Of a stretch of DNA of 64,000 bases, positions 7,190 through 54,133 are shown piece after piece. The DNA comes from Labyrinthula sp. Ha (Eukaryota; Sar; Bigyra; Labyrinthulida; Labyrinthulaceae): the NCBI GenBank assembly GCA_015227615.1, contig JAALGZ010000020.1, positions 248,001 through 312,000 on the forward strand, given 5' to 3'. The translations under genes were made by a program, and so were the position numbers. The notes beneath the pieces were generated by a model. The model worked only from the letters and a program-made list of their open reading frames with translations. It was not told where the DNA came from and searched no databases. Within the stretch, counting starts at the first letter, position 1. Every line of letters begins with the position of its first letter.

Positions 7190-10100
7190 ATGAAACAATT
7201 ATTTAAATTAGATGAGATAAAGCTAGGATATGGTCCAGTTGTCTTCTCCTGGTCTTCAGATGGAACGATTCTTGCATGTTCAGGGTCTAACAATATGCTT
7301 ACACTTTTTTCAAAGCATGGTAACCTTCTGGATGAAGTTGATTTGGAGCAAGAAAGTTGCAAGTGTAATTTTTTTTTCAGGTTAATGGTTAGTCTTGGAT
7401 TGGTCAAAATCTAGCTCTTTTCTTGCTGTTAACTTTTCTTCGGATGATGATGTCATTTTTATATATCAGCTTAAGACTAGAAACATTTCAAAGCTTTCTG
7501 CTGGTGTAGATTGCATTAGTTTCCTCCAATGGTCAAGTTATGGAAATTTTCTGGGTGTAGGAGGTCAAAAGGGTGGAATATGCATATACAATAAAGATAC
7601 AAATACGAAAGAAACTTTTTTTGGCAAGCATTCTGCAAGTATTTGCTCTGGTGCATGGACTTCTTCTAGAACAAATTTGCTTCTTCTAGGAGGGAAAGAT
7701 AATCTAATAACTATAAATAACATTAAGGGGAAGACATTGCTCAGTATAGGGTGCAATCACATTCCGAAAAAAATTCTTCTTGTACCAGAAAACACGACAA
7801 AAAAACTTTCTTGGAATATTAGTGCTAATTTAGAATCAGAATGTATTTGGTTTTATTCTGAAAAGACTGCTTCAGATGAAGAAGATAAGGGTGATATAAA
7901 CTCAACCCCAGGAAAGCAAGTGCAACTAACATTTGAGCCCAAGTATGGGAAGTTGTTGGATTACCACTTTCTCACTTCCGGTGATGTGGCGGTGGGCTTC
8001 AATACCGGTTTTGTTATTGTTGCATGTGCTACCGAAGATGGATTTGGCGAAGAGATTTTTGTTTCCAAAATTTTTGAGGAAGGTCTATCTGTAATGTTGA
8101 ACTGTGCAGACCTAGCTCGAATAGTTTTTGGATTTGGATCTGGAATTAAAATCTATTCGGAGGTGAAACATAATACGTCTGGGGACATATTGAGGTTACA
8201 TGCCGAAACAAGGGTTGATGAGGATTTCTTACCTACTTCATGTGACTTCTCAGGTAATACCAATATCTGCAGCGTCGCATCCTCCAAGGGGTGTTTATAT
8301 TCCTTACTTATTCGTGCCCCACTTGTCTCAACAGTACATCGCAGCTTCGCGAACCCAAGACTAGCTTATCTATCCTCTTTGAAGGAAGTTACGGTGCTTG
8401 ACTTAAAAAATTACATCGATATTACTAGTCCAAGATTGAAAGAAGATGCAAACTCTGTTAATGGCTGCAAGAAGTGGACCCATTCTCTGAGTTTTGAACC
8501 AGCTTTAATAGCGGCCAATCAAGACATTGTTCTTTGCGTCTATGAAAGAAAAATTCAGGTTTATGCTGAAACGAAATTAACTGATCTCATCAAGAGCAGA
8601 AGAAAAAAGAGTTCACAGATAGATGCGCAAGAATCTAAAACACAAATAAGTTTTAAGCTCTCCGAAGTTGAGCTACAAGATCAGGTCGAATTTATTGTGG
8701 TAAACGAAGATAACTATGTGGTTGCTCTAGTTGAAGGAAAGGCTTTTATTTACTACATTATTCTCGATACTTCTTCAAAAATTCAACTAATCGACACCAT
8801 TGACACACAAGATAGGGCATACGAGTCTATTACAGCTATCGGAATAGTCAAAGATTTCTTCATATATGGTACTAGTCAGGGAATGATTCAGTATTACTCA
8901 TTGATAAGAAAAGAATGCCTTGAAAAATTTCGTTATCAAAGTTCTGCAAAATCATCAATTAAGAAGCTATTCCCCAATATCAGTGGAACCAAGGTGGCGT
9001 ATTTAGATGCAACAAACACTTTCTATTTAATGTTTCCTACTTTCTTAAGCTACCCGTTAGTAATTCGAAAGCAAGTTGAACCAAGTTCAATTGTCTTGTG
9101 GGATTTGGCAGATCAATTATCCTACTGTTTCTTTTTAGTTACTAAGACTGATGTATCTACCTTTATACACACTCCACAATCGCTTTCTGCGGTTCTTAAT
9201 GATAGCCTATCCGGTGAAATAACTGAAATAGGGCCTTTGCAAGTTGGGGAGGATGGCAGCATTTCTATGACACCTTTGGCTACTAAACTATTTCCTGGTT
9301 ATATTCCTTTGTGTGTTTATGGTGGTATTCTAATTTGCCACTTTGCAGAGAGTTCCAAGCTAGGAAGTATTATACTCGGAACACATGACTCACTTCCGGG
9401 CAGCATTTTTGAGAGGCCTTTACACAAGAACTTGAAGACCTTGGAGGAACCCACAAAGGAGAAAAGATTTTGCCAACATTTAGCTTTGAATCAACATGAA
9501 CATGCCTGGATTGAAGTTCTTAACATTAAAAACAGAAAATATTGGTTAGCGCTTAGTACAAAACTTCTAGAAACTCTTAATATCCAGCTTGTCATCCATT
9601 TGTGGAGGGAACTTGGTAATGGAAGTATGGTATACACTCTTGAACACATTCTTATGGATATTCGCGCAATTGGTAAAAAGAGAGAAGAAAAGAAATATGT
9701 TGCTGGACGAATATTGGTACTTTTTGGTGAGTACGGTAAGGCTGAGAAACTACTTCTTGAGTCTTCCGAACCAGAAGCGGCTTTGGATATGAGGAAAAAA
9801 CTTAATCAGTACAAAGAGGCTCTTGTATTGGCCAACTCAATGGTTAAAGAAGGCAAGGCACTGAGCTCTGATCTGGACATTGCCGAAGTTGCGTTCAAAT
9901 ATGCTCTAGAGCTTGAAGCAGAAGATGATTTTCCACAAGCATTGAAGTTGTTTCAACTAAGCCTAGAAAATTTGAAAACTTTGGAAGTAGAAAAAAAGTA
10001 TCCGGAAGCTTCTACTCTTGCGAACCAATGCAAATCTCATATTGCCAAATTAAGCTTAAGAATAGGTGATATCTCACAAGGGGTAGAACTTGCCCTCCAA

Positions 10101-11720
10101 TTAGCTGATAAATATATATGCAAAGAGTGCGCTGATATTTTGCTCGACCTTTTTATTGAGTCCGATACGAACTCAGAGAGATGGATGTATGATGCTGCAA
10201 GGCTCTATCAAATGGCTCAGGAAAATGATAAAGCATGTAAGCTTTATATAAAGTTAAATAATTTCAAAACAGTTTCAAAGCTTATTGATACAGTTACAGA
10301 TAGCATTGTACTAAGTGATTATGCAGCAGCGCGTGAAAGATACGAAGACTATCAAACTGCTGTCAAGTATTATAAGAAAGCAGCTCGCTATGAAGAATGT
10401 ATTAGACTTTACCTTTTTAAGCTCTCTGTTCCTGGAAAGGCTTTTCAACTTGTTCGTGAATGGAATTCAAAAACAGGAGCAAAAAAGTGCGCTGACTATT
10501 GTGTTTCAACAAATGATATAAAACAGGCTATTGAATTTTCGTTTATTGCAGAAGAGTGGGATGAAGCCTTGAATTTGGCAATTTCCCATCATGAGAATGA
10601 AAACACCATTAAGGTTCTTGAGCGCTGCTTAGAAAATAATGCACTGAGAAATACATTAAAAATAGATTCTTCATTTTTCTACAATAGCTTAGCTGAATAC
10701 TTTGAGCAAAGACATGACACGCTTAAAGCTGCAGAGTATTATACGTGCTGTGGCCAGTTTCACAAGGCCATTTCCTTATTGCTAAGCAGTAATGACCCTG
10801 GCAGCATTGAGAAAGCTATACAAGTTGTGGGAAATGCAAAGAACGACTTGCTAACACATACTGTAATTGATTTTCTTATGGGTGAAACCGATAACATTCC
10901 TAAGGATGCTGTCTATATTTTTAAGCTTTATGTTGCACTTAATAATTTTGCAGAGGCGGCAAACACTGCTGAACTCATTGCGAAACAGCAACAGGCAAGC
11001 TGCAACTTTTCCAAGGCTCATAAGATTGTATTTCAAATTGAGGAAACGTTGAGAACCAGAAACACAGATGTGAAGCTACCACAAAGTGTATACATGCTAA
11101 TGATGATTTTGCACAGCTATTTGTTAGTTAAGAAAAGAATCAAAGTGGGAGACATTATTGGTGCGATTCGTTTGTTGGAGAGAGTATACAATTCTCCACT
11201 TGGTTTTAATGAAGAAGCTGTAGCGAAGGTATTAACGACTTTAGTACTTCTCACACAAAAGGCTTCTTTCAAAGACCTCTGTCTAAAATATGCTGATATT
11301 CTTATGGAGCAAAACTATCGATCTCAAATTGAGCCCAAATATAAGCGAAAGATTGAAACCATAGTTAGAAAGCGCGGAAACCTTTTCCAGAAAGTTTTCA
11401 GTCTCCCTTCTGAGTTGGCGTTACATTCTCCGTTTAGTGAGGCACTTGTCCCAGAGTATAAGTTAGTTTGCCCAGTGTCAAGTGTACAAATTCCCTTTTG
11501 TATCGTTACAGGCAAGCATGTTACCTTGCAGGATTATTGTGTGTGCCCTAACAGTGGACTGCCTGCAATTTATTCTGAATATATTACTTATCTAAGGAAC
11601 TTTGATAATAAAGATTCTGTTGATCCAGTTTGGTCTCGACCAATCACTGTGAGTCAAATTAAAAAACTAACCCCGGATGAGGCTAAAAAGCACCTGACTA
11701 AGCTGACCTCGAACTACTAA
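7190..11720 (+). CDS. IFT144: intraflagellar transport protein 144 (WDR19 homologue)
   Basis: This is a subunit of the IFT-A complex, which drives retrograde transport in cilia and helps bring membrane proteins into them. Exon 1 is 7190-7364 and exon 2 is 7393-11720, joined across a 28-nt intron (7365-7392) that begins GTAA and ends TTAG. The join gives 1500 residues, against about 1340 in the human protein. Exon 1 matches the family start (FSWSSDGTILACSG, then a KHG turn) and exon 2 resumes at the conserved LDWSKSS strand. Residues about 1-660 form two WD40 propellers and about 770-1340 a TPR-like helical array (for example GEYGKAEKLLLESSEPEAAL). The conserved tail (about 1417-1450) includes IPFCIVTGKH and LPAIYSEY. 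The CxxC pairs usual in that tail are incomplete. The identification is firm; the splice is inferred from homology. Confidence 0.95.
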
Positions 11721-11851
11721 GCTACCATAGGTTTGCGAAGAAAAAATATACTCCTTTATACAAAATACACACCTAATTGATATCACTTTGCAAGACTCAA
11801 GGTAGTTATAAATCAACTAACACATCTATTCAAAAGTACAACCTCCAAAAG

Positions 11852-12640
11852 CTATTGATTCAGTGCTCGGATGTCGTTAAGCGCTGTTTCCAAGCTATTC
11901 TTCTCCTCTAGATCCACTCTACCCTCTAACCTGCACAATATCTCTTCAAGACCTTTCTCAAACTGTAAGAGCTGTAAAAACCTAGCATTCTTCTCAACAA
12001 CTTTTTCTAGAGCTTCCTTTGATTTTTCTTTCTTTTTCTCCCTCTCCTCTAGTTTCGAACGCAACTCCGCCTCTTCCCCCGCTAACAAGCTCAATTCTCC
12101 ATCCTTCTTGGTTACTTTATCCTGCGCTTTAATACCAGATTTGATAGTTATACTACTACCAACCTGAAGCGCGTTCAACCACTTGACAACTTTCTTTTTA
12201 CTTTTCGCTTCAAAATATAACGTTTCATATCTCGGGTGAAGAATCTCGAAACCTTTTCCTCCAGGAATTTGAGACGTAACATCAAACATACAAGACTGTA
12301 AATCCAAGATAAGTTCAGGAGGTTGCATTACACTCATTATTTCTTCTACTTTAAGTTCTTCCTTAGACATAGCCGCTTTGTGCAACTCTTTGTCAGAATA
12401 AAGAACCAGAAAACCATCTTTAACGAAAACAAACCTTTTTACCTTGCTGGGAGAAGGTTTGAAAGTAACTACATTCAATACACCAGAAGCTTGAAAAAAA
12501 TTTACTTTAACACTTGGCAGAACAGTTACTGAAGATTGTCTGCGATAGTACCCCGCCAATGTGGTTCTACTGTCTTTCAAAGAACTCTTTTTTCTTGATT
12601 CCGCACGTTTCTGAAACAACTTTTTATCTAGTTTATACAT
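11852..12640 (-). CDS. PH-domain and coiled-coil protein
   Basis: A probable phosphoinositide- or protein-binding adaptor. Counted from the first ATG (12640) it has 262 residues. The frame stays open another 22 codons upstream to a TTG at 12706 without an ATG, so an extra 5' exon is possible; that extension is basic and would add a KKNFVTRRLKKLYY segment. A pleckstrin-homology fold follows, beginning at FFQASGVLNVV. It continues through KRFVFVKDGFLVLYSD and a glycine loop (QIPGGKGFEI), and ends in a helix carrying the hallmark tryptophan (KVVKWLNAL). The last 75 or so residues are a charged coiled coil rich in Glu, Lys and Leu. The gene is tail to tail with IFT144, 131 bases between stops. 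The PH call is good; ligand and role are unknown. Confidence 0.8.
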   Translation of the reverse strand: MYKLDKKLFQKRAESRKKSSLKDSRTTLAGYYRRQSSVTVLPSVKVNFFQASGVLNVVTFKPSPSKVKRFVFVKDGFLVLYSDKELHKAAMSKEELKVEEIMSVMQPPELILDLQSCMFDVTSQIPGGKGFEILHPRYETLYFEAKSKKKVVKWLNALQVGSSITIKSGIKAQDKVTKKDGELSLLAGEEAELRSKLEEREKKKEKSKEALEKVVEKNARFLQLLQFEKGLEEILCRLEGRVDLEEKNSLETALNDIRALNQ

Positions 12641-13069
12641 TTCTCGGGCAATATAATACAATTTCTTCAAGCGTCGGGTTACAAAATTCTTCTTGTTCGA
12701 GAACAAATATTTAAACTTATATTTGGTTTACTAAAATGTTTTCCTACCTGTTCTCACCTTCTGTTTTAGTTTTCTTTGATATATTATTGCTCTGTATTAG
12801 ATGAGTAACGGGGTTTTATTGGGCAAAAACAGATGACGCTTACTATATATCCGGGGGTATCTTTATTTTGGATCGATGGTCGAGAGTTCAACGGACATCG
12901 AAGTCTGATTCCGGGTTAATTGTGAAAGCTAAGAATAGTCTTACCAAAGATAGAAGTGTTTAGGTAACAGTATTGAAGTTCCGGTAAGTAACAGAGAAAC
13001 TAATTGGAAATAGAATAATGGGTTCTCGGTAGCGGGAAGTTTGTGATTAAAATAGGTTGATTCCCGTAA

Positions 13070-13327
13070 GATACGGCGTTAGATGGTTCCCATTTTCCAA
13101 GAAGATATTTTTTTCATTCTTACCTATTGCATTCTTCATCTCGTTTTCAGTCATCTTGGTTCACTGTACTATTTCGTCCCTTACCCGATGTTCAGTTGCC
13201 TGCTTCTGGTGTTTTTGCCCAGGGAAAGCCATTCAATTTCTGGACTAAGAGAAGTAATCCTTCTTTTGAGTTACTTTGGGAAACAGGTTCATTGTTGGAA
13301 AATTCAATACTTTGCATTAGGTGCAAT
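13070..13327 (+). pseudogene. coding-like open frame, no start
   Basis: From GAT at 13070 a plus-strand frame runs 85 codons to TAG with coding-like composition (FRPLPDVQLPASGVFAQGKP, then FNFWTKRSNPSFELLWETGS). It begins just after a TAA and has no ATG. A second plus frame is also open over the same bases. It may be an exon with unknown partners or a relic. No family recognised. Confidence 0.2.
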
Positions 13328-13363
13328 TAGCCCGCAGGTTTTCGGGCCTGATGTTCCTGCACC
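13320..13363. other. two-tier hairpin
   Basis: Outer arms GGTGCA (13320-13325) and TGCACC (13358-13363) enclose inner arms GCCCG (13330-13334) and CGGGC (13343-13347). The inner loop is 8 bases and the internal loop is lopsided, 4 versus 10 bases. Such GC pairing is unusual in this AT-rich context. It could form in RNA from either strand. No RNA family was recognised. Confidence 0.3.
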
Positions 13364-13639
13364 GGTATATATTATACCCTTCAAATATTACAAACAGCCA
13401 TTTCGACATATCTAAGGCAAAATCTAAAATAAAATGTCTGTCCATTGCATCAATGCTTAATCCGAGGAAAATTGAATATTAATAGTTTCGTGACTGGGCG
13501 CGTTAAGAAAAATAGGTGCTTTGGGTTAACAAAATCACGGTACTCATCATTTACTTCTATTTTCTTTAACCAACGTACTCAAAGCGTTGAAACAAGCAAA
13601 ATGTACACGTATAATAAGCATGAACCACTGATAAGAATC

Positions 13640-14430
13640 TGATGAGAATGAACTAAACTGGGGTAGCTGCTTGTAAAATAAAAAGCTATGGCTACAGAAA
13701 AGAATACAAGCAAGCAAGATTACAGTGCTGTCTTAAAGTTCTTTACCCTCAGGCTTAAGCTAAATTCCTTATATTGTATGGTCAAGTAACGATGTTGGCA
13801 GGTCTTCCATCAAGAAAGGTATTATATGCATGTGATTGTAGCCTCTCGTGCGTGGCAGAGAAGAGTACACCAGGTTACTTTTCTACTGCTATCAAATTTA
13901 AGGTACTTTGCTTCAGTTAGCTCATCTTCAGTATGTTCAACCTGGCTGTCTGTCATACCTCGCTCAGGCGCTGTTGCTTTCTCTTTGATCTCTTCTAGGA
14001 TTTCACATGCTTAATCGGGAACGACGGGATAAATTTTATCTGCAGCTCCAGCTGTCTATTACATATAGTCTAAAACCAGAGGGAATCTTTTTAGATTCGC
14101 ATTGCCATGGAATAATCTAGCGAAGAGCTGTTCTTAATTGTGGATAGTGTGATATCTATGTATATAACCTTGTAAGGACAGTGCGGAACCCGCGAACTCT
14201 CCCATCCGGGTTTGTTAGAATGAAGTCACAACTAGAACTAGAGCTTATCATTCCATCACATTGGGTGGAAAACCTTCCAATAGCTTCGTGTAATGAACGT
14301 AATGTGTTCTGGGAAGAACTGAGTTTCGGCGCAAATTGAGTATGGTGTTTCTTATTGGTAAACAAGACAAGAAACTATAAGAAAAACACATAACAATCAT
14401 TACCGTTTCTTTACCGGTAGAATATTCACT
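13640..14430 (-). mobile_element. decayed PiggyBac-like transposase relic
   Basis: Minus-strand frames here read as protein but are broken. Around 14.1 kb is KKIPSGFRLYVIDSWS, which resembles the KP-x-K-x-G-F-K-L-W-x-x-x-DS strand of PiggyBac (DDE_Tnp_1_7) transposases. Farther along, about 13830-14010, a frame reads EILEEIKEKATAPERG and then KYLKFDSSRKVTWCTLLCHA. This resembles the family's RG-x-x-x and KW-x-D-x-x-x-V-x-x-L-S-x-x-H segment. An upstream frame (14156-14365) may be its N-terminal part. In-frame TAA and TAG codons occur within these stretches and frames change, so the copy is dead. I found no TTAA target duplications or terminal repeats. The family call rests on pattern resemblance only. 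Confidence 0.3.
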
Positions 14431-15175: not shown

Positions 15176-15197
15176 AAATTATACATTCTTAATCTGA
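15036..15197 (+). CDS. small ORF with presequence-like N terminus
   Basis: An ATG-initiated frame of 53 codons, shorter than most gene finders accept, begins MARLARVLHILSCSSRVQ. It is Arg-rich, amphipathic and free of acidic residues through its first half, as in mitochondrial targeting peptides. It stands just downstream of the densest CCGTTA-type motif cluster in the window and is less AT-rich than the flanks. A second coding-like frame follows at 15243. The two may be exons of one gene, but I could not find a GTA...TAG intron that joins them. No family recognised; chance remains possible. Confidence 0.3.
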   Translation: MARLARVLHILSCSSRVQYALRHALPGSAIVSQTPNVSLSLVNQILGNYTFLI

Positions 15198-15242
15198 GTC
15201 AAAAAGTTTAAATCTTTGAAGACAAAACGGCGGAGAAAATAA

Positions 15243-24300: not shown

Positions 24301-24302
24301 TG

Positions 24303-25191: not shown

Positions 25192-26876
25192 ATGATCAGT
25201 ATCAATTCAAGTAATCCGTTTAATGAATGTACATCAACATTATACGAGGTGTACCAACAATTTATATACCCATTAGAAAAGAACTTTTACTTTTCAGAGT
25301 TTTATGGACTTCAACCACTGTCAAAAAACTGTCTGAGCTCAAAGCCGCTTATTCTGGGTACGTCTTTTGTCTATGTATAATATTACGTAGTGCTTGGTCT
25401 GGGAAATAGTGGGAAAACTAGTTTTATACAACAGCTGATTGGAGAGGACGCCATCATAGCGTAAAAGTTTTTTGGGTTTGTGATGTTTATAGGGAAGGAA
25501 ATGGTGAGTTTAGTAGTAAAGGCTTTAAGGTAATTTACCATGGAGATTTTGATGAAGCTGCGAGTCCCTTTGAAATGCATTATGAAGAGTGTTTGCCTTT
25601 CCAAGACATCAAAGTTCTTGGAAAAAGTTTTGTTCATAATCACTTGCAAGGCTGTCGCAATACCTCTGAGTTCTTGAAGAACATGACTTTCGTGGAGGTA
25701 CCTGATCCACTTGAAGCGCAGGGAAGAATTCCACGTTACGAAAAGAGCTTGAACTACTTTTGCAACAAAGCCGCAAAAATATTTTTATTACTCGATGTGG
25801 AGGATCTGAACCTGAATATCAAGAACGATTTCAACAATAAGTTAAAGAATTTATTGACAAGAGTTGGGAGTTTTCAAGACAAACTGAGCATAGTATTCAA
25901 TAAGTGTGACCATTTGGAAACGAACTTTCAGCGAAAGTTGAGACATACGTATGGTGAGTTCATGTATTTTCTTGGAGGACTGTCTAGAACATATAGGAAT
26001 ACAAATGATTTTAATATTTTTACTATTAATACCAGAGAGCATTTTGATGATGAAGAAAACAGAAATGTCCTTCAGCTGGATTGGGAGGACATAAAGAAGA
26101 TTATTTCTGATGTGGCGAAGGAGGAAGTTCTTATTAAGAGAGATAAAGTAGAAGAAAGGGCAAACATGGTAAAAATTCATTCTATTATCATGTCTCACCT
26201 CAGAAGCCAGGTTAAATCTAAAGCCTATTTTGAGAGGGCACAAAAAACACAGAAACAAAAAGTTGCTGACAAAATAGCCTTCTTTTTCAAAGAAATTTGT
26301 AGAATACACAGGGTTGATCCCAAGGACTGTCCAAACCTTGAAAAGTTTAGGGAAGTGTTTAATTCATTTCCTTTGGAAGCTTTTTTTAATTTGCCTGTGT
26401 TAAGTGATGATCAGAACAAATTTTTTGCGTCATTATTCCAAAAATTCTTGCCCTCTGCAGAAGATATGTATGGTAAGTCTTTGAGAGTAGGTGAAATAAA
26501 GAGTTCTTGGTATAGCTTGCTGGATTTGCCTCAAGTTAGTGAACAAGCGTTGCCTGAAGATGAATCGAATGAGAATATTTACAAGACACCTTTTGATGAT
26601 GACTCCTTTTCTGTGATACAGAAAAGCTCCAGCTCTGAGCAACCACTTTCCAAAAGGCAGACACCTAGTTTCGGCGTCAAGAGCTCAAATCGGTCTGTTA
26701 GTAAGTCAAGCTGGAGGAAGAGTGGAAAGATTGGACTTAAGACGTTAAGGAGAGTTCAATCTATGAAATCTAAGAAAGGCGGGACAAGATTAAAGTCTTC
26801 TTGGTGGCATACATCTGGGCAATCAGTTACATCAAAGGATACTTATGATTTGGATCCGTTGGGCTTTGAGGCTTAA
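25192..26876 (+). CDS. EHD-family dynamin-like ATPase lacking an EH domain
   Basis: EHD proteins bind nucleotide, oligomerise on membranes and remodel endosomal, caveolar or ciliary membranes. Three exons (25192-25357, 25391-25460, 25493-26876) encode 539 residues, joined across introns of 33 and 32 nt that both start GTA and end TAG. The joins restore the family pattern. Helix LYEVYQQFIYPLEKNFYF is followed by KPLILVLGLGNSGKT with the P-loop GLGNSGKT at residues 58-65. The body then continues to FNKCD (NKxD-type motif, 215-218) and a long helical domain. The G3 motif, normally DTPG, aligns with EVPD (147-150), so catalysis may be altered. An NPF tripeptide stands at residues 7-9. The C-terminal 120 residues are Ser-rich and basic, and no EH domain is visible at either end. 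The family assignment is strong. Confidence 0.9.
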
Positions 26877-27371: not shown

Positions 27372-27375
27372 TGAA

Positions 27376-28243
27376 CTAAATGTCATCATCGTCATCTTTT
27401 TTTGCCACATATAGAGTATTCTGTTTAACACTATTCACGCTCGGCATAAATAAATTCACAGGTTCACTAATCAACCATTTCAAAACCCTAGCCCCGTTTG
27501 CTATTAAGAACATCTGCTCACCCGCATCAGAGTTATTCGAGCTCATCAAACATAAAACAAAGCATGTCGCTAAATTATCAGCACTCATCTGATTAAACCT
27601 TTTGAACGTGCAAACTTCCCGTAGAAATGAGATTAAAAATCCCAAACATTCTCTGTTAGGTCTCTTTATTCTTTTAATTACTAACCCTAGCTCATCAATT
27701 TTTTCCTGCCTTGCGAAAGAAGTAGCATTTAGTATTCTCACACACTCATTTGTTGCTTGAAAGGGCATTAACTATATGGTAAATCACTGCAGAGAAGAAA
27801 TACAGGGGAAGGAAGTGACTGGAAGAAAGATTTCAATAAGCCACAGACGTCATGAACAGATGGCTCACGTGGCAAAGTATCCAGGACGGAGATCTAAGTT
27901 AAGTAGAAAGAATTTATGTACATTCTTTTTCTTCTTATGTCTTGGGCTCGAATAATACTTGTTGTACTCTTTCTCGATCTCAGTTATATAACCTTTTTCC
28001 CCAGGAACTCGAAATATACCCTCAGTATAAAGCCCTACGATATATATTTTTATAAACAGCTTACCTTTATTTCTAATATAAGCAAGGCAATCGCAGACGA
28101 CAATAGGAGCTTCGTGATCCAAAGCGGACCCAAAGAAACCTAGTTATTATGATAATTATTTTGAGATACCTCCAACTGAGTCAAAATTCTAAATAAATAT
28201 TTAAACAAGTTGAAAAAAATACTTTCGCACCAGGGTTTGGCAT
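27376..28243 (-). CDS. RhoGAP-domain protein, six exons with five ultrashort introns
   Basis: It should stimulate GTP hydrolysis by Rho-family GTPases. Exons in transcript order are 28243-28223, 28188-28170, 28139-28065, 28034-27922, 27893-27804 and 27771-27376, giving 237 residues. The introns are 34, 30, 30, 28 and 32 nt, each GTA...TAG. The spliced product aligns end to end with the RhoGAP at 53.1-54.1 kb: NFDSVGGFFGSALDHEAPIV against NFDGEEGFFGRKLDHEAPIV. The arginine finger is R47 in GLYTEGIFRVPG. Downstream family motifs are HDVCGLLKSFF, LPSPLMPF, NRECLGFLISFLREV and NQMSADNLATCF. The protein is little more than the GAP domain and ends in an Asp-rich KKDDDDDI tail. The 30-nt third intron keeps the frame open if retained. 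Confidence 0.9.
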
Positions 28244-41132: not shown

Positions 41133-41210
41133 CTAAAGAAAAATATTTACATCCATCCTCATCTTCATCAAGGCCTGGCCGGGGAGAGAGGGCCGAGCCA
41201 AGCGGGCCAT
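41133..41210 (-). other. GC-rich patch with a very short ORF
   Basis: Bases 41170-41210 are strikingly GC-rich against the surroundings. On the minus strand an ATG at 41210 opens 25 codons beginning MARLARPSLPGQALMK, sharing its first six residues with the small ORF at 15036. The frame meets TAG at 41133 and then stays open 20 more codons. The last 18 bases of the ORF would form a GTA...TAG unit, but that is shorter than any verified intron here. It may be an exon 1 or a relic. Confidence 0.2.
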
Positions 41211-44042: not shown

Positions 44043-47000
44043 TATACAGAAAAGTAGTGCGGGCTCAAAAGTTTATATCTTACATAATATGTTGGAGTAG
44101 ACAGGAGAAGATGGTATATATGAATAAAGCTTTAGGTTAATAGTGAATGTAATAGAGAAGAAGATATTCAACTAAGGTCTAGTTAATCGGGTTCCTTATG
44201 CTGGTAGAACAAACTTCATACACTTTTAACATTTTATTTCTTTAGGTTTTCTTTTAGTTATTTTGTAGCTATGATGAAATTGAATTATTTACGTTAATGA
44301 AGTTGTAGAATGGTAGTCGCCAGAATTGTATAATATTTATATCCTTAATTTTAGCCAGTTTTCTCGGTTCAATTTAAATTTAGATATTTTAGTATTTAGT
44401 TTCATAAGAAAGGAACAAAGTCGTAAAATAATTCAATTGAAAATACCAAAATGAGACACGATAAAACATGGTTTGACATTCTTTGAAACAATAATTGATA
44501 TTTGCTTGGAAACAATTTTTTTGCAAGGTTTCTAGCAGGTATTTTATACCCCAAAAATCTCATCATACTGATCTAATTAGTTTTTTGGGTTTGGTATTTT
44601 TTTGCAGAGGACTTTTAACTTTTGTATCATCTTGAAAGCTCTTTAATATATCAATACATCATGGTTAGGTATTATAAGATTGTTAATGATGCAATTAGGG
44701 AGCCGTATATAAATAACTGTAGAGGACTCGAGAATATTGTATTTTCTGTAAACTAAATTGTCAAAATATTTGAATCAAGTGAAATGCAATGCAATGTAAC
44801 TGCGAAAGCCTCCAAAAATATGGGGGCATGTTCAGTAACTTGTACAAGCGATTGGCATTTCTTTCCAAGAAACTCTTGATGTCGAACGGAAACAATTGCA
44901 TATCTGGGTATGTTCATGAGATAGTGGCTGTGCAAAATACGATATATCTTGTATCTTGAAATCAAGAATTAACACCCTTGGCTCCAGCACAGGTAGGGAG
45001 GGGGGCAGAATAATAAAAATCTGTCATTTATTCCCTTGTCAATGGTTCATCAATGTTCAATCAATGTTATATCTAGACATACTCCCAGTCGCTCTGTCAT
45101 ATAGAAAATTCCCCCAAACCCTGAATGAAATCCTCAATGAAAACTGACTCCGCTACTCTAGGAACAGACAAAATGTAAAGGATGGATAGTTTTTTAAGAA
45201 TCTATACCGCGGTGCTAATGTAGCAGATTGTTACTATAATGCCCCGGTAGTCTGGTCAATTTTGTTTTGAACAACTCTAATCACGGTCGCGGGGGGAATG
45301 TTCCTCGAAGAAGGTGTATCTAAAGTCAAATTTCCGAGACAGAATAGAGTGTAACAAGGTTATCTAGACCATAGGTCAATACTAGTGCAAAGTCAAACTG
45401 AGTTTAAGAGTCACACTAGAATCTGTGACTATTATACATACTTAGTTACTATTGGATGCGCCATTATGACCTATTCCTTGGTCATATTCCCTATGATGTA
45501 TCATAAGAATTCCATAAAGTGGCTGGTCAAAGTAAGACCATTCGTAGCATTACCAAAAACAACGCCCACGCTAAGAAGTTCCATATTTAAATCATATAGA
45601 GAAAAGGGTACACAAAATATTTAATTGATTTTATGAAAAAAAAAATCTAGTAATTTGGTGCCTGTGGATGACCAGTGATGTATTTTCCCCGAAGTCTGAT
45701 AGTTCCTCCTAGGCTAAAACATTTCGTAGTTTATTAAGCTTTATTAGATGATTAGTTGTGAAAAGTTATCTAATTGTATATTTCGATGGAGCTGGGTATA
45801 TAGAATGTGTTACTATTAGTTGCACTGGATTTGTCTTACCATTGAAAAGTTTTTAAGAGGAGTTTATGCAGCAAATATAACAGGTTTTTTGAGAATTGGA
45901 TCGTGAGTTTGAATTAGCCAGGAGTTGAACTCTTGAGTTATTTTGTTTTGGGTAAGGAGGGACCACTGTTTTTTTTACTTATAATGTAGTTCTAATGATT
46001 ATTAATGCTATTTATTAATTCGTACTGGTTCCTCATGAACGGTTTAACTCAATATTAGCATTAATTGATGTTTGATTGTTTCCGAGGATTAGGGTATTGA
46101 AATTGATATATTTAAGCAACCAGACTTAATAAAGTGGGTTTATATTCCTACTACCCTTGTTCAGACAGGGTTTTCTCCTTTTGCTACTGGCAATATTATT
46201 CTCTTGCATTCAGGCATTTCTCGAATTATGTTTTTATATCTATGCTTGAGAATTCTTTGAGTTCAGTTGAGGAGTGGCGTATTGGCAGAGAGTCATGCAT
46301 AGAATAATGTTATTACGTGGCTATTTTTAAAGGGTCTAGGCTATTTATCATAGCTGATTTTCCTGTCCGCTACCTCGATAATAATGTTCGCCTTTCAGAG
46401 GCATTAAAATTTTATTCTTCTCTATGGATTCAGGAAATGAATACTCAAGTGGCGTGTAATTTTCTTTTAGTAAGTACATTCCCTGATAATAATATATAGG
46501 CTTGGATACAAATGGTTACGATGGATTCAACGACTAAGGATAACGAATAGTTTTGAGTTTCTTGTTACGCAGGATATGTGACTTCTGTTATATGGTCCAA
46601 CTTACCCCCCCCTTTTTTTTATATTATTTCTACCAACCTCATCTTTATTTACAGTTGAAAAATATAGAATTACAGGTCATTCGTGAGCTAGGCGGTGTTT
46701 TACTAACATGTTTTTAGAGTTCTAAAACCCCAGAATAGGAGCACTAGTTTTCAATATTGTATGTTAGGAGCGCTATTATTCCTTTCAATGTGATTTTTTG
46801 GAAATGTCTTGAATATTTCTCGAGGTCGGAATATTTGAAAGACCACCAATAATGTCGTCTGTCGAATTTGCTATTTTTGACTCTTTCAGGATGTGTTCCT
46901 TGGGAGTTCAAACATAGTTAACATAATTTTAGTTTTCTCACTTTTATAGTGTTGAAACTCGGTTCTGTTTTGTTGGATTTTGATTAGACTTTGCTACGTT

Positions 47001-49185
47001 TGATTGCTGTGTTGTATAAGATTTGGAATATTATGCCTTTGATGTAGTTTCTTGATGTGATACAAGAGCTGGAACTGCTATTGCAGGCGAGAGGGAGTTA
47101 TTCGCAAAATGTTTAATTGCAAATTTTACGATAAACATTTAGTCGTAAGTGGTTTGCACCTGCATCTGGTATTTTTTCCACGCTTTGTATTCTTAATTGT
47201 TCAATACAATTTTAGTTTTTTTTGTAGCGCGACTTCTAAGGACAGAAACTAGGTCAAAGTATGTTGTATCTAGGGATTGGATTTAATGTATTGATAATAA
47301 GACGATAATGATTTTTCCCATGTTTTTAGTTTTTTATTATAATAATTCCGCAACCATTTTGATTGATTATTGCTAATTTATTTATAATCAGAATAAACCA
47401 GAATCATTTGATAATAATCAAAATTCCAATTCCTGTTTTGATAATCAGAAACAGAACAATTATCCAATAGTATTAAAGAACTTTTGTCCAATTCTATACC
47501 TTGTCGTATCTTTGAGAGCAAGCCGATGATTCCCTTGAAAATTTTTGTAAATATATCAAGAGTTTGTACAAATGCAATGGAAGACAATATTTTCTTGAGA
47601 ATTGTTGTTTCATCTAAGGAATACGAGTTTTTGTTCCATTTCCTATAGATTTCACAGAGAGGGTAAAGACGCTAGGTAACAGAAAATTTCCTTGGAATAC
47701 TATCCTACTTTGTTCCGTGCCCTTACCATATTATTCTACTAGATAGAAATATCTTGACTATTATGTATGAAGTTCGGATTAGATTATTTGGATTATTGGT
47801 ACTCTATATTCCATCAGTTGCAAAGTTGCAAACTCGTGTGGTATGCTATAGAATCCTTTCTTAAAATCCATGAATAACACGTGAAAGAGGATCAATTAAT
47901 TCAAGAATTCTGTCATTGAAATTCCCAAGTTTTCGATATTCTGTCTTCTGGATTTTACACATCTAAAATTAGTTTAACTGTTAGACAAGCATTTTAACAT
48001 TAGCACAAGATGGCTATTGGTGATTTTTACCAAGAACTCAGAGTTTAGGTTGATCAAGAATCTCGGACAACTATTTACAGGCCATTGATGCTAGATTCTT
48101 GTTAGTAGAGAAACAGTGCATTTCGTTTGCAAATACATTTTTCGTTTATTGGCTATTGAACTTAGCTCCCTTAAAGAGCTTAGATTCTTTGCATTATTCA
48201 GTTTACTGTTTCTGAATTAAACTTTAAGACCTGGTTCTCGACGTCATTTCACCTAGGAACATTATTGTTTTCAATAGGTCTAATGATGCAACAATGCCAT
48301 CCATGGATCCGAGATTCACATTAATTTCATCTAGCAGAGTTGGTTCCTATGTTCTAGTCTTGTAATGTCATATTGATTTAGATAATGGTTATGCAGCTGG
48401 AACTAGAGTGATTTGTTCCTTCTCAAGATAACCTTTCAAGATACCTACATGGCTAGTAGCTTCCACTTAGTTTACAGATGTATCTTTATGTATTTTACCA
48501 AAACTGTCCTTAATAGATTTTAGCTTAGCAGTTGACATGTGGTTGTGTAGTTTTACGTCTCAGCCATTGTTCGCAATTTAACCGCAACTACTTGCTCCCA
48601 CTTGTAGAAGGCCATTCTAGGTGATGGTATAATATCTTCGGGAGTTATTTTCTTAGCTGCTTAGGTTGGTCTGACCAGATATTTAAACTTGACAAGGGAT
48701 TAGGAAAGTCTGAAATTTTTGTTTTCGTGGTGTGGTTGTAATTCCTCTCTACTAGAAACTTTTCTATAACTAGCGGGATGATGCCTAGTATGTCTTCAAG
48801 ATTTCTCTCAAGCGCCTTACTCAACAGATTAGTTTTACGAGTGTTTCTTTATGTTTTTCTTCACGCTATATATTAAATTTAAATAGGTCAGACTTTAGTT
48901 GGTGGTGTCGTCTCTTACCAATGTATTCTTGACATCTTGCTTTGATGAAAACATATACTGCAAAATGATCGATGTTATGTTTTCCTTAGAGGTTTTCTAT
49001 TAAGATCATTCTTATTTTAAGCAGAGATACAACAGGCGCATGACCTGTCCACACATATTCAACTTTTTATATAAGTCGCAGTGTCTGTACTTGAAGTGAA
49101 AGTGGCACTTTTTGTAACGTCTTTGTTGCCAGCAACAATTGAATGAATAAAAATTTTCAAAGCTTTTACTAAATGAACCTCGTTA
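44043..49185. other. gene-poor stretch with scattered coding-like pieces
   Basis: No intact gene. Short frames at 44956-45147, 45385-45624 and 46317-46499 have fairly coding-like composition but no recognised family, and frames shift between them. A C8/T8 homopolymer junction lies at 46605-46620. Bases 47335-47460 are rich in TTGATAAT/ATTATCAA words shared with 55.8, 56.3 and 61.1 kb. Bases 48100-49000 have a more even base composition than the desert average but no readable protein. Confidence 0.5.
46605..46620. repeat. C8/T8 homopolymer junction
   Basis: Eight C directly followed by eight T, a simple-sequence tract with no obvious role. Confidence 0.7.
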
Positions 49186-49430
49186 TCAAACCTTTCGCTT
49201 TCGTTTGATAAAGAGCCGAAGCCTATTCTCAATTAGATTCCAATTACTCGCTGAAGTCTGGATGTTAAGATCCTCATGACCTAGACGCAGCCTTCTTTAA
49301 TTAAATGTGATAAACATTTGGCTGAACGGTCACAGAGAACCCTTGTTCTTCCTTGCATAGTACCCAATGCAAAAAGGGTACAGGCTTACTAAGATTTATT
49401 GAGGTTTTCCCCTAGCTTAACACCCAGTTA
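49186..49430 (-). mobile_element. possible Tc1/mariner-type transposase relic
   Basis: On the minus strand a frame reads QTSASNWNLIENRLRLFIKR followed by KRKV. It resembles the block near the end of Tc1/mariner transposases (SPDLNPIEN-x-W-x-x-LKRKV), which carries the last acidic catalytic residue. Here the canonical Asp is replaced by Asn and the frame contains upstream stops, so the copy is dead. No terminal repeats or TA duplications were found. The family call rests on one motif. Confidence 0.25.
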
Positions 49431-49649
49431 TAGGATTCTTTTGCAAGGTTCATTAATCTCCGCGACTTGGTTCAAGATTGTTACAGTCAGGTACGTCGCT
49501 GCAGCCGCAGCTTTTTCAGGAACCTTTGAGAAAACCAGCTGCGAGTAGCTAAACCGACACTCTCCGGTGGCGGAAGGTGATCCATTTAAGTCCTTTGCAG
49601 CACTTATGGCCAAGAAATGTCGATAGGTTGCTCCAGCTGGCGAACACAA
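49428..49649 (-). pseudogene. coding-like open frame, unknown family
   Basis: A minus-strand frame of 73 codons is richer in GC and Ala than its surroundings (GATYRHFLAISAAKDLNGSP, then KVPEKAAAAATYLTVTIL) and ends at TAA near 49428. It begins at TTG, and an in-frame TAA stands two codons upstream with no ATG between. It may be a terminal exon whose acceptor is the CAG directly before it, or the N-terminal part of the adjacent transposase-like relic. No family recognised. Confidence 0.28.
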
Positions 49650-49740
49650 CTGCGATTAAAGCGGTTAGATCGCCAAGGTTCAATCAGTTTATTTTCATCG
49701 TTGCGCTAGTCAACTCACAATCCTTGGAACTTCTTTTAGA

Positions 49741-49766
49741 TGTGTGTGTGTGTGGGGGGGGGGGGG
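49741..49766. repeat. (TG)7 microsatellite followed by G13
   Basis: Seven TG units run into 13 consecutive G. Alternating TG can adopt Z-DNA and the G run can form quadruplexes. It is likely length-variable. Confidence 0.85.
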
Positions 49767-50602
49767 ATAAAGCTCAAGAGTTTGTATTTTTGCTTCATTC
49801 TTGGCATAGTTATGTTGCACAAAAAAAACCTGGACATCGAATTGGAATTTGACTAAAATATACACCGTTCGCACATACAGCGTTTCTCAACGACAGAACC
49901 TCTGCTTACTATGTAAGTTGTCTCTGGTACTTACAGTAGAAGGTCGTTTCGATAAGAAACCTTAAATATATCCTTAATAAGTCATAATGCACATTATCGG
50001 GCTGCTATATCGGTAAGCTATTAACGACAAGAATTGTTTTACCGCTACAACTCCGTGTATAAAGTCAGGTTCCTTTTTCTCGAGTAACCCATGAATGTCC
50101 ACCTTTTTCTAGCTTGAACTCAAAACAAGTAAGGTTAGCAGAAAGGTGGTAAACATATCTTACTACAAAAGGTCGGGCTAAATGCAACAGCATATATGCT
50201 TTAAACCGTCTACTTTGTATATCTTGGAAGTCATTTTATGCTTAAATACAAACCTTTCCGGACCATCATCATGCATTGTTCTTAGGAGCTTGAGAGATTT
50301 TCTTGTCTCCTTGCGATGTTAAATTATTGTAAATATTGAATTACCGATTTAACTAAAAGCAGGAGAAAAAATTTACGAATTGCCAATTTCTTGTGTGCTC
50401 AAACGTACGGAGAGTTTCAATTTACAATAGATTCGTCTCGTTTCTAGAACGTGTCTGGACCCGCCATTTCGCGCCCATTATAGACAAGATTTTTGGGATT
50501 GAAAAGTGAACGATATGACAGTACAAACGATAAATTTACCGGTATTTAACGGTACAGATCTTAGCTAACTTCGTTCAATTTTTATTGCCGTCTCTGCCGA
50601 TA

Positions 50603-50938
50603 TCATAGCCTAGTAAGAAGTAAGGAGAGCATGATATATAGATGCAGGCGACCAGCTTGTCGCCGAGCGATCGGTTGTGCGAGACGTAATATGAGGACAA
50701 TCCAGCAACTAGCAACTTTCAAAACCAAGAGAACAAAGATTATAAAGGCGTAAATGAGATCATACGAGTACCAAGTTCCAGGACATAGTACCGAATCAAC
50801 CAGAGAGAGCATGTAATACACCAAGTTCAGAAAGTATAATCCTTGGTTTCTGCTTAGAAAACACGTAGTTTCAGGTGGGACAACAGCCCAATTGGAGATA
50901 ATAAATATTAATAATAACCCAAATTTTCTATGCCGCAA
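50603..50938 (-). CDS. probable exon of a multi-pass membrane protein
   Basis: A 111-codon minus-strand frame with gene-like codon use predicts about four membrane segments: KFGLLLIFIISNWAVV, LYFLNLVYYMLSLVDSVL, YDLIYAFIIFVLLVLKVA with CWIVLILRL, and LHLYIMLSLLL. A positively charged ARRQAGR loop precedes the last segment. The frame starts at TTG with no upstream in-frame ATG before a TGA, so a 5' exon is probably missing. A TAG acceptor-like site stands upstream (about 50967), but I could not fix a donor or phase. TACCGGTA/TAACGGTA-type motifs lie just 3' at about 50530-50560. Family unknown. Confidence 0.42.
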   Translation of the reverse strand: MRHRKFGLLLIFIISNWAVVPPETTCFLSRNQGLYFLNLVYYMLSLVDSVLCPGTWYSYDLIYAFIIFVLLVLKVASCWIVLILRLAQPIARRQAGRLHLYIMLSLLLTRL

Positions 50939-50969
50939 AAGTGAAGGAAGGGTGTAACAACATCTAAGA

Positions 50970-52250
50970 TTTTCAAAAAAGAAAATTCAAAAGAATAACT
51001 TTAAGGCTTGCCGTTTTTTATAGTTTAACACTAAGTTCACTTCTTAAACAACTTTGTGTGTGTTGCTTCGGGTATAACTATTGTTTCAAACTATATAATT
51101 CTTCTTAGTTCGAATTCTCTACTCTCTGTATCTTTAGACCTTTTCGAAGACTAATCTTGAAAGGATGGATTTTTTATATTAGCCTCTGCAAAAAGACTAT
51201 AGAACACGTGAAGAAGCTAACTTACGGCTCCTAGCTACATTTCTAGTACAAACAGCTATTAATGGAAAACCCCCAGAAACTGCCCAAGGTTAGTTTTGAC
51301 GTTGCTCTCTAAAGAACATGGGAAAGAAAAAGGCGAATATTCATTGAGGTGGGTTAGATTGGCTGCCAATATGTACTCCAAGTATGAAAGAAAATAAACA
51401 AGACGTTTACAGTTCATAAGACTTTGACGTCATGTTGGTGTCCAGATACTGAGAAAAAAAAAGTATATTTGACAATGCTTTCAGCACTTCATAGTTTGAT
51501 GGTAGCAAGAACCGTTGATGCGCTTGAGTTCACATGAACACAAGTCATCAAAGTTGAACTAAACCTGTGACCATGTGAAAAAAGAATTAATTCACAAAGT
51601 TTTTCCTTACTAGACACAGAAATACACTGTTCTATCTAGAAAACATGAGAGAAAATGATGTGGATATTCGTTCAAACTTTTAGATAAGTAGTATCAACTA
51701 GAAAAAGAAGTTTAGGTTTAGGTTCTCGATTTTTAAAAGATGCAACAAAACCTTTTCAAACCGAGACAAAGAGTTGTGGAGTATTGTTCCAATCGATTCT
51801 TAATTCGTTTTGTTCTCTATTTACAAACCCGACCTGGTAAAACCATTCTCTACTTCTAATTGCCCTTCCTCTTACCAGAAACCAGTTAAACAGTCCAGTA
51901 ACTTCTCAATTATATTCTTCGGGACAAGAAAACTTTCTAAAAGTTTCTTAATAGTACAACCTCTCGTGATAAAACTTAACTTACTTACCCTGGTTATGTT
52001 TGAGAATATATTCTCAAGTATTCGTCCCGTTCATAATAAATTCGTTTCCCCAATTCAATGATCGATCATTAGAACTTGTTACCAAGTATACTTTGCGCAA
52101 TCATATATAAAATAATATTTTGAGTACTATATTTTTAGAGGGGTTATTAAACTCCACATAAAGGAGTGTTTTCCGGTAACAGGAGCACAAAAACTGACCA
52201 GCGCCAGTAATAAAAAACTATGATCGAAAAGCAATAACCAAACCAAACGC
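50970..52250. other. non-coding stretch upstream of the 52.3 kb island
   Basis: No convincing gene. An 83-codon plus frame at 51810-52061 is Ser/Phe/Leu-rich and looks like chance. Confidence 0.55.
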
Positions 52251-52260
52251 TAAATAAAAT

Positions 52261-53119
52261 ATGATGAATAAACTTGTAAGTAAAGAACAGAAAACAAAGG
52301 CGATAACTTCCTTTCAAGTCTTTCAGTACTTTATAACAAAGGACGAACAAGGTAGAAGAACAGGAGACAAGATATTTTCAAAGGAATGCTTCCACACGTG
52401 GTTGGAAACCAGAAAGGAAAAGATTGTCCACCCGGAAGAGTCTTTCAGAAGAACTTTGTTAGCACACTTGTAACTTATTTTCACGTTTCTTAATTTTTAG
52501 AAGAGGAACTGATGGTAGACAACCTTTTGATCCTGAAATTGAAATGTCTCTGTTGAACCTTCTTCGAGAAAACAACCACAAAAAGAAAAGCGAAAAATCA
52601 AACCCTTGGAGTAGATGCTTTGATGGAAACAAGCAAAGAATAGGAAAAAGAGGTTTTAACAAACTAGGTTTCCATGAGCAGAAAAAACTAGCTAACTCAG
52701 GAGAATCACTTCAAGCTAGAGTTCAGGGATCCCTATCTCCTCTACTTAAGCAACAACTTTCTCCTACACGAAAAAGAGCCAGGGTAGATGAAGTGATAGG
52801 AAATAGTGGGATGTCAAAATTTGGTCGCTGTTTTATACAAAACGATGTTATTACGTACTGCGATCCTATGTTGACAAATCTTTTGGGTGCTGATGCATGC
52901 TTCACGAGTGTATATACCTTATTACAAAGTCTTGATATTACATGTACACAAGTTAATTTACTTCAATGGAGATCTGCTTTGATAGAAGTTAGAGCACAAG
53001 GTGGAGCATCAACTTGGAGACAGTTCTTAATAAATGGCAAACCTTTTAATGTGAAGATACAAGTGCAAAGTTTATTTCCCTCTATATTATTGTGCATATT
53101 TCAAAGGATTCATATTTAA
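52261..53119 (+). CDS. two-exon protein with a possible C-terminal PAS-like region
   Basis: Exon 1 (52261-52469) and exon 2 (52501-53119) join across a 31-nt intron (GTAA...TTAG) to give 275 residues. The junction is in phase and keeps a charged helical region continuous (FRRTLLAHLLRGTDGRQPFD). The N-terminal 100 residues are charged and helical, and the middle is basic (a KKKSEKSNPWSR stretch and SPTRKRAR, a possible nuclear signal). The last 100 residues (FGRCFIQNDVITYCDPMLTN, then a long spacer and STWRQFLINGKPFNVKIQV) have the rhythm of a PAS sensor fold. Function is unknown; a nuclear regulator is a guess. Its stop lies 3 bases from the stop of the RhoGAP gene on the other strand. A GTAAGT near the start leaves some doubt about the N terminus. 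Confidence 0.65.
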
Positions 53120-53122
53120 ATT

Positions 53123-54133
53123 TTAAACATCTGGAAAACCTTCCTCAAACCCAGTTTCCTGCTTATTATTAAAACTGGGGAACGCTTCAGCTTGCTGTTG
53201 TTTTTGCTTTTTCTTTTTTTTCTTTTTTCTACCTTGGATAGCTTGATGTTGCTCACTTGTCAATATATGTGCATAATCATTACTTCTTTCTCTTGTATCT
53301 TTGCCTACCGGGTTTCCTCTACTAGATCCTTGTGTTGACGTTCCTCCGGGATTAGACTCGGCTGCAGGCACAGGCTGACCAGTACCTTTAAACTTGGTGT
53401 TATTTTTTACATTCTGCATGCTTGGCATATATAACTTCACATCCTTTGTGATCAAAGTTTTCATAGCTATCCCACCAGTTCCAAGAATTTGTAGCTGATC
53501 TGTAGCGTTGTCTGCTCCAATAAGACTCAAGACGAAGCAAGTTGCCAGATTTTCTGCATTCATTTGATTAAATTTTCTAAAAGCGCTGACTTCCCTCAAA
53601 AAACTAATTAACAAACCAAAACATTCACGATTTGGTGAGGGGATGGCTCTAATAATCCTGTTGACGGAATCGATTAACATTGTCGGTTCATCACGATACT
53701 TTTGTATAGCATTCACCATTTCATCAATACTCCTCCGAGATATAAATGGCGTTTCTAGATCGTTGAAAAATGCTTTAAGCAAACTGGCAACATCATGAAC
53801 TTGTAAGCCATGTTCATCCTTAAACTCGTTCAATACACTATGGGAATCATACCGCTTTTTGTCTTTATTCTTGTAATATGCATTATAGCGCGCCTTGAGT
53901 TCATCTACCACACCTTTTCCACCTGGAATTCTAAACACTCCTGTTGTATACAGTCCTTTGTTTCTAATAAAAGCCATGCAGTCACAGACAACTATAGGTG
54001 CTTCATGGTCCAGTTTCCTCCCAAAAAAGCCCTCTTCTCCGTCAAAATTGGCATTCTATGAATAAAGAGTTATTAGGGGGGATACCTTATGTGCATTGCC
54101 CTGATTTCGTGCACGATGGTTACCGTGAGACAT
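53123..54133 (-). CDS. RhoGAP-domain protein, two exons
   Basis: A Rho-family GTPase-activating protein of 326 residues. Exon 1 (54133-54086) encodes MSHGNHRARNQGNAHK. A 30-nt intron (54085-54056, GTAT...ATAG, with a CTAATAAC branch-point-like word) follows, then exon 2 (54055-53123). A longer ORF overlaps exon 1 in another frame, but only the 48-base exon starting at 54133 joins in phase. Family motifs are the arginine finger R58 in GLYTTGVFRIPGG, then VHDVASLLKAFF, NRECFGLLISFLREV and NQMNAENLATCF. The C terminus adds an Asn/Gly/Ser linker and a KKKKKKKQKQQQ basic-glutamine stretch absent from its 28 kb paralogue. It shares one intron position, or a close neighbour, with that paralogue and lacks the others. 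Confidence 0.9.

What the first reader, a model, noticed from the sequence alone, without database searches (positions are those of the whole stretch)
7190..54133. Ultrashort spliceosomal introns, 28-34 nt, all GTA...TAG
Ten introns can be placed. IFT144 has 7365-7392 (28 nt). The EHD gene has 25358-25390 (33) and 25461-25492 (32). The RhoGAP gene at 28 kb has 28222-28189 (34), 28169-28140 (30), 28064-28035 (30), 27921-27894 (28) and 27803-27772 (32). The gene at 52 kb has 52470-52500 (31), and the second RhoGAP has 54085-54056 (30). Each starts GTA, ends TAG and joins in phase. Nine restore a conserved domain or a paralogue alignment. Introns this short and uniform are known in ciliates, nucleomorphs and a few other lineages, and imply a constrained intron-definition spliceosome.
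Basis: partly seen in the sequence, partly recalled or inferred. Interest (0 to 1): 0.85.

Follow-up and report, generated by a model that had tools for sequence, protein, structure and literature searches.

The report
Protist with tiny introns, altered U6
A single-celled organism with cilia genes splices out introns only about 30 letters long in many genes, and its only detected U6 splicing RNA carries a rare change at the spot that normally reads the start of an intron.

Summary
All ten segments are GTA...TAG at the stated coordinates. Seven of ten equal, to the base, junctions of gene models held in EukProt, whose MAKER strings mark all splice sites transcript-confirmed (meaning recalled). 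One (28064-28035) is retained in the public model, but homology favours splicing. The 52-kb intron has only frame and gene-finder support. The pattern recurs across the genome: in 20 Ras-family loci GT-AG beats all 255 other dinucleotide pairs; of 49 supported introns 37 are 27-34 nt, 7 are 42-134 nt. Signals are GTA, TAG and a U-rich, G-poor body; +5G (6 of 46) is not above the body and no branch motif exceeds shuffles. The only U6 gene detected reads AUAGAGA instead of ACAGAGA; its U4/U6 helix fits the local U4 and not human U4, so it probably works. Ultrashort introns are a known kind; I found no report of this U6 change in the searches made.

The parts
7365..7392 (+).
   Evidence: Letters; conflict; 4 of 5 PDB chains favour 28 nt, one favours 37 nt; gene finder
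7190..11720 (+). IFT144/WDR19 gene
   Evidence: Pfam WDR19 propellers in P0001; PDB matches
25358..25390 (+). 33-nt intron 1 of the EHD-like gene
   Evidence: Exact junction of P0010; MAKER string field 2 = 1
25461..25492 (+). 32-nt intron 2 of the EHD-like gene
   Evidence: Exact junction of P0010; MAKER string field 2 = 1; gene finder
25192..26876 (+). EHD-like gene (539 aa)
28189..28222 (-). 34-nt intron 1 of the first RhoGAP gene
   Evidence: Exact junction of P0002; MAKER string field 2 = 1
28140..28169 (-). 30-nt intron 2 of the first RhoGAP gene
   Evidence: Exact junction of P0002
28035..28064 (-). 30-nt intron 3 of the first RhoGAP gene (3n, no stop; retained in the public model)
   Evidence: RhoGAP 125.1 v 111 bits when spliced; 7 of 7 homologues score higher
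27894..27921 (-). 28-nt intron 4 of the first RhoGAP gene
   Evidence: Exact junction of P0002
27772..27803 (-). 32-nt intron 5 of the first RhoGAP gene
   Evidence: Exact junction of P0002
27376..28243 (-). first RhoGAP gene
   Evidence: P0002, PF00620
52470..52500 (+). 31-nt candidate intron in a gene without Pfam match
   Evidence: Frame only and gene finder, which also proposes 52326-52355 in this gene; no Pfam family at E 0.01; not compared with a public protein
54056..54085 (-). 30-nt intron of the second RhoGAP gene
   Evidence: Exact junction of P0003; MAKER string field 2 = 1
53123..54133 (-). second RhoGAP gene
   Evidence: P0003, PF00620
25964..25996 (+). decoy: 33-nt GTA...TAG inside the EHD-like exon, kept as exon in P0010
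   Evidence: Proposed by the gene finder but absent from P0010; one of 7 exonic decoys

Best explanation
These are real GT-AG introns of the major spliceosome, of an ultrashort class (mostly 27-34 nt) that recurs in genes on many contigs of the 50.8 Mb genome of an unidentified protist with cilia genes. SHOWN by calls: GT-AG ends, length peak, GTA and TAG preference, exact agreement of 7 window introns with public models, U1, U2, U4 and U6 genes, Prp8 and SNRNP27 domains and a METTL16 homologue, and a single detected U6 gene reading AUAGAGA whose stem II fits the local U4. INFERRED: each intron is recognised across itself. U1 (canonical 5' end) reads GUA, perhaps with the exon-end G; the U-rich, G-poor body separates true introns from exonic GTA..TAG decoys. 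At hand-over to U6 the docking helix relies less on +5G, because the U6 base expected to face +5 (the C before the methylated A) is U here, which could pair with +5A or wobble with +5G. Longer introns with the same ends are also spliced, so the machine tolerates short introns rather than requiring them.
For: Exact junctions of 7 of 10 introns in public models (strings). Profile-to-DNA alignment of 20 Ras-family loci: score gain 2161.6 for GT-AG, best of 256 pairs; the runner-up GG/TA (1860.5) is the same cut moved by one base; median 1170. 49 supported introns (48 distinct) of 76 proposed in 32 loci: 37 of 27-34 nt. Signals in 46 distinct introns of 24-40 nt: +3A 40, -3T 41, exon-end G 29, +5G 6, body T 52% and G 7.6%. 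Finder with only GT and AG required: in the 25-34 nt class GTA 15 of 21 and TAG 14 of 21, against 28% and 25% background, and 17 and 13 of 63 in the class over 100 nt. Composition (T minus G) separates 34 true introns from 7 decoys with AUC 1.0. snRNAs: U6, U2 x3, U1 x3 beginning AUACUUACCUG and U4 x3. METTL16 homologue.
Against: I saw no reads. Transcript support is only what MAKER strings say, whose meaning I recall. The finder with only GT and AG recovered 2 of 10; the GTA/TAG run proposes 58 introns against 20-46 in controls, so many of its single calls are false, and its coding model was retrained on GTA/TAG output. The Ras loci were picked mainly because matches were split or partial, which selects for introns though not for one length; their introns share positions, so exon signals are not independent (exon-end G 26 of 39 Ras, but 3 of 7 window introns, list). 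No branch motif exceeds shuffles. For the U6 link: +5A is 17 of 46 (p = 0.09 against the body), U1 still carries the C that pairs with +5G, and the B. natans nucleomorph has no identifiable 5' motif with ACAGAGA intact (PMC6461891, passages). U5 was not found; that search rang in no control either and shows nothing.
Confidence: 0.95

Rival explanations
1. DNA-level excision: the segments are TA-bounded eliminated sequences like Paramecium IESs (G-TA...TA-G), removed from DNA rather than RNA.
For: 40 of 46 introns start G-TA and 41 of 46 end TA-G, and IESs can be this short (recalled).
Against: TA-for-TA excision would remove L-4 bases and break the frame that removal of L restores in the homology-supported introns and in the exact public models. 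GT-AG is the best cut; TA/TA ranks 12th of 256. MAKER strings report transcript-confirmed splice sites. Retroelement-like sequence at two contig ends, judged by eye, does not suggest a macronuclear assembly.
Confidence: 0.01
2. Minor (U12-type) introns.
For: A few introns begin GTATCC (2 of 46), like the U12-type donor as recalled.
Against: No U12 or U6atac match (no control rang either, so absence is not shown); donors vary, no TTCCTTAAC-like site was noticed by eye in the 46 listed introns, and major snRNAs are present.
Confidence: 0.01
3. Mostly chance or gene-finder artefact: in-frame GTA..TAG segments picked out of coding sequence.
For: Seven exonic decoys in 7,818 nt; the finder's false-call rate is high.
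Against: 255 other dinucleotide pairs do worse; 7 of 10 equal public junctions; decoys differ in composition without overlap.
Confidence: 0.02
4. The introns are real, but the U6 C-to-U change is drift or serves something else and has no causal part in loss of +5G or in short introns.
For: +5A is not significantly enriched; the B. natans nucleomorph has no 5' motif but keeps ACAGAGA (PMC6461891, passages); U1 is canonical.
Against: The box was invariant in 240 fungal and outgroup species, and the one variant cited there, in C. merolae, is at another base (PMC10581693, passages); the changed base is the one expected opposite +5, by inference from m6A43 facing +4.
Confidence: 0.45

Closest known systems
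Nyctotherus ovalis introns (PMC2633312, passages)
   Same: 21-29 nt, exon|GTA...TAG|exon, T-enriched, no branch motif found, three longer predicted ones (76, 114, 252 nt)
   Different: Here the mode is about 30 nt and 7 of 49 supported introns exceed 40 nt; U6 box AUAGAGA here, U6 not mentioned in the passages seen
Paramecium introns (PMC11334263 and PMC5014332, passages)
   Same: Over 95% are 20-34 nt, GTA/TAG called the canonical splice sites (PMC11334263; PMC5014332 counts only GT...AG as conserved in oligohymenophoreans)
   Different: Paramecium shows a deficit of 3n introns; here 10 of 39 are 3n and 4 of those lack a stop, too few to judge
Bigelowiella natans nucleomorph introns (PMC6461891, passages)
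   Same: Tiny introns without an identifiable 5' motif
   Different: Its U6 keeps ACAGAGA; this genome is a 50.8 Mb assembly with AUAGAGA
Cyanidioschyzon merolae U6 variant (PMC10581693 and PMC11732430, passages)
   Same: A natural change inside the U6 ACAGA box
   Different: There the central A (faces +4) is U and U1 genes are reported absent; here the preceding C (expected to face +5) is U, and U1, METTL16 and SNRNP27 homologues are present
Larvacean non-canonical introns (PMC13326754, passages)
   Same: Introns that depart from the usual donor consensus with a largely conserved U2-type spliceosome
   Different: There ACAGAGA is strictly conserved and U6 m6A is reduced; here the box letter itself changed and GT-AG ends are kept

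Membership tests
U2-type spliceosomal introns | GT-AG termini at the true cut | tested here: met
   Best of 256 dinucleotide pairs over 20 loci
U2-type spliceosomal introns | Absent from mature mRNA | tested here: inconclusive
   7 of 10 equal public models whose MAKER strings report transcript-confirmed splice sites; no reads seen
U2-type spliceosomal introns | Major snRNAs and core proteins in the genome | tested here: inconclusive
   U1 (three copies, each below Rfam's cut-off: 66.2 v 69.5 bits, 5' end perfect), U2, U4, U6 and a Prp8 domain found; U5 not found by a search that rang in no control
U2-type spliceosomal introns | Branch-site motif complementary to U2 | tested here: inconclusive
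   U2 has GUAGUA; TAAY in 17 of 46, shuffles 15.2. Nyctotherus introns also showed none (PMC2633312)
Ultrashort intron class (ciliate or nucleomorph type) | Sharp length peak below about 35 nt | tested here: met
   37 of 49 at 27-34 nt
Ultrashort intron class (ciliate or nucleomorph type) | Nearly no longer introns (as in Paramecium) | tested here: not met
   7 of 49 are 42-134 nt, three of them possibly mis-joined; so the genome is not filed as one with only ultrashort introns
Ultrashort intron class (ciliate or nucleomorph type) | Depletion of translatable 3n introns (Paramecium, Nyctotherus) | tested here: inconclusive
   3n without stop 4 of 39
Paramecium-type IES | Excision between TA repeats (L-4) keeps the frame | tested here: not met
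   Frame is kept by removal of L
U12-type introns | U12 and U6atac snRNA and matching donor and branch motifs | tested here: inconclusive
   No match, controls silent too; 2 of 46 donors are GTATCC

The most novel reading that the evidence does not exclude
A nuclear spliceosome in which the 5'-splice-site docking code has been rewritten: the U6 ACAGAGA box became AUAGAGA, +5G recognition was given up, and introns are identified by GUA, UAG, a U-rich G-poor body and a short span. METTL16 and SNRNP27 homologues persist although the motif changed by one letter next to the A that METTL16 methylates in other species.
Probability: 0.4. Interest if true: 0.78.

Novelty: new variant of a known kind. 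Interest (0 to 1): 0.58.

Why it matters
It adds a protist with megabase contigs to the few genomes whose dominant introns are about 30 nt. If the U6 change is confirmed in RNA, it is a natural experiment on a highly conserved contact in 5' splice-site docking: it asks whether loss of +5G follows, precedes or is independent of a change in the facing U6 base, and how METTL16 copes. It also warns that public annotation can miss or shift such introns: two of the four public models checked here differ from the homology-favoured junctions at one place.

Tried and rejected
Rejected: IES-type excision (L versus L-4 frame); U12-type introns (disfavoured, not excluded); pure chance. A gene finder with free lengths was too weak for single calls (2 of 10 recovered) and is used only for class statistics; its 35-100 nt class also shows TAG in 13 of 32 and GTA in 11 of 32, so some true introns may lie there. 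Naming the organism failed: three protein-hit lists carried no species names (EukProt MAKER ids), the rRNA search did not complete, and ten contig ends show no telomere by eye. Anaeramoeba was set aside because A. ignava is printed as 80.65% A+T (PMC11550330, passages) against 66% for this window; the value for A. flamelloides was not in the passages, so this is weak. A branch-point motif was sought and not found. Stem I of U4/U6 does not discriminate (-11.6 v -9.6 kcal/mol). Searches for a natural AUAGAGA U6: one search listed 15 of 43 papers, none evidently about U6 variants by title (the one splicing paper, PMC3454408, holds the letters only in a primer; passages); one search listed 2 of 2, both on plant miRNAs. 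With that is the basis of the novelty claim, in one open-licence library. Short-intron searches (listings) named no such organism that I could match.


Full report
OBSERVATION. The ten segments are in the window as described. Their MAKER strings carry 1 in the second field, which I recall as full transcript confirmation of splice sites; the third field of P0002 is 0.8. I saw no reads.

TWO CONFLICTS. P0001 (IFT144) is joined from a GTTGCA donor (7356-7392, 37 nt) and its string has 0 in that field. P0002 keeps 28064-28035 as coding sequence; it is a multiple of three without a stop, so frame cannot decide, but splicing it raises the RhoGAP score from 111 to 125.1 bits and extends the match to profile position 1, and raises the best BLAST score with 7 of 7 homologues. 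The public model may also reflect real retention. The tenth intron, 52470-52500, sits in a gene without a Pfam match and has only frame and gene-finder support.

GENOME-WIDE. The window is part of a 50.8 Mb assembly in 153 contigs. I took 20 Ras-family loci whose matches were mostly split, partial or interrupted by stops, 11 more with mostly short or partial matches, and L006. A profile of seven intact Ras-family proteins of this genome was aligned to the first 20 with introns of any one of 256 terminal dinucleotide pairs and flat length 10-200. GT-AG gained most (2161.6); next was GG/TA (1860.5), the same cut moved by one base; the median was 1170. Over all 32 loci, 76 introns were proposed in 30 loci (two loci, L062 and L066, gave none), and 49 (48 distinct; L044 and L045 share one) lost at least 10 score units when their donor was disabled. 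Of these 49, 37 are 27-34 nt, 40 are 24-40 nt, 7 are 42-134 nt and 2 are under 24 nt; I judge the latter two and those of 42, 48 and 55 nt possibly mis-joined. GTA begins 41 of 49 and TAG ends 39 of 49.

HOMOLOGY-FREE CHECK. On 295 kb (window, 20 regions spaced along five contigs, and nine loci) a coding-potential model that required only GT and AG gave 29 introns of 25-34 nt, against 0-13 for nine control pairs. With lengths to 400 the 25-34 class has GTA in 15 of 21 and TAG in 14 of 21; the class over 100 nt has 17 and 13 of 63; the 35-100 class 11 and 13 of 32. This finder is weak: it recovered 2 of the 10. Requiring GTA and TAG, total score is 4692 against 4313-4441 for 17 control pairs and all ten are recovered, but it proposes 58 introns where controls propose 20-46, two of them extra in the window's own genes. 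The coding models were retrained on GT-AG output or GTA/TAG output, which favours the true pair to some degree. Single calls from the finder are not evidence.

SIGNALS. In 46 distinct introns of 24-40 nt (39 Ras, 7 window): +3A 40, +4 T22 A11 C10 G3, +5 T18 A17 G6 C5, +6T 31, -3T 41, exon-end G 29 (26 of 39 Ras); the body is 52% T and 7.6% G. +5G does not differ from the body (p = 0.16); +5A is suggestive only (p = 0.09). TAAY occurs in 17 of 46, shuffles 15.2. In 7,818 coding nt there are 7 GTA..TAG decoys of 27-34 nt, one of which (25964-25996) is kept as exon in P0010; T minus G separates the 34 true GTA/TAG introns of that length from these 7 without overlap.

MACHINERY. U6: one gene found by the family search, which scored 48 of 6155 candidates (59.9 bits, cut-off 44), and one place only within 3 mismatches of the conserved core. 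The box reads AUAGAGA; a TATA-like run lies upstream and a T run follows. The base in the position of the bulged U of the internal stem-loop is C (my reading of the alignment). U2 (three copies) keeps GUAGUA; U1 (three copies) begins AUACUUACCUG, though its whole score (66.2) is below Rfam's cut-off (69.5); U4 scores 48.8-50.4 in three copies (cut-off 46). The METTL16 homologue matches the U6 A43 methyltransferase in the PDB (1.8e-34, methyltransferase domain). SNRNP27 and the Prp8 U6-binding domain are present. U5, U12 and U6atac gave nothing, but those searches rang in no control, so absence is not shown.

LITERATURE. The ACAGA box was 100% conserved in 240 species, with C. merolae cited as having the central A changed to U; m6A43 faces +4 (PMC10581693, passages), so the C before it should face +5 (inference). 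Larvaceans, where most introns escape GT/AG, keep ACAGAGA (PMC13326754, passages), as does the B. natans nucleomorph, whose tiny introns lack an identifiable 5' motif (PMC6461891, passages). Nyctotherus and Paramecium have ultrashort GTA...TAG introns (PMC2633312, PMC11334263, passages).

VERDICT. Known in kind (ultrashort GT-AG spliceosomal introns), with a rare U6 change that may be linked. The link is a hypothesis: +5A enrichment is not significant, U1 is unchanged, and another lineage lost the motif without changing U6.

Noticed in passing
G000:C96 about 200.3-222.9 kb and C135 about 72.7-77.5 kb (L030-L032, L053-L055): U1, U3 and U4 genes sit within about 3 kb of each other in three loci, with U2 genes 4.4-4.7 kb away, two sets in opposite orientation on C96 and one on C135; U6 lies on C46.
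   Followed up: partly
L009 1501-1609 (minus strand): The U6 base aligned with the bulged U of the internal stem-loop reads C, a second change at a place that is conserved in the Rfam consensus.
   Followed up: no
window 7356-7392 and 28035-28064: Two of four public EukProt/MAKER models examined disagree with the homology-favoured junction at one place (other donor; retained 3n intron).
   Followed up: yes
G000:C66:1471971-1472444: The Prp8 domain lies in a single open frame of 2434 codons, apparently without any intron.
   Followed up: no
G000 contigs C2, C71, C72, C107 and others: Dozens of weak Ras-profile matches fall in open frames of roughly 600-650 aa, suggesting a large expanded family of GTPase-like genes.
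   Followed up: no
L077, L078 (ends of C99 and C110): Retroelement-like coding sequence at two contig ends, by eye (reverse-transcriptase-like and CCHC zinc-knuckle motifs recalled); no telomere repeats seen at ten contig ends.
   Followed up: no
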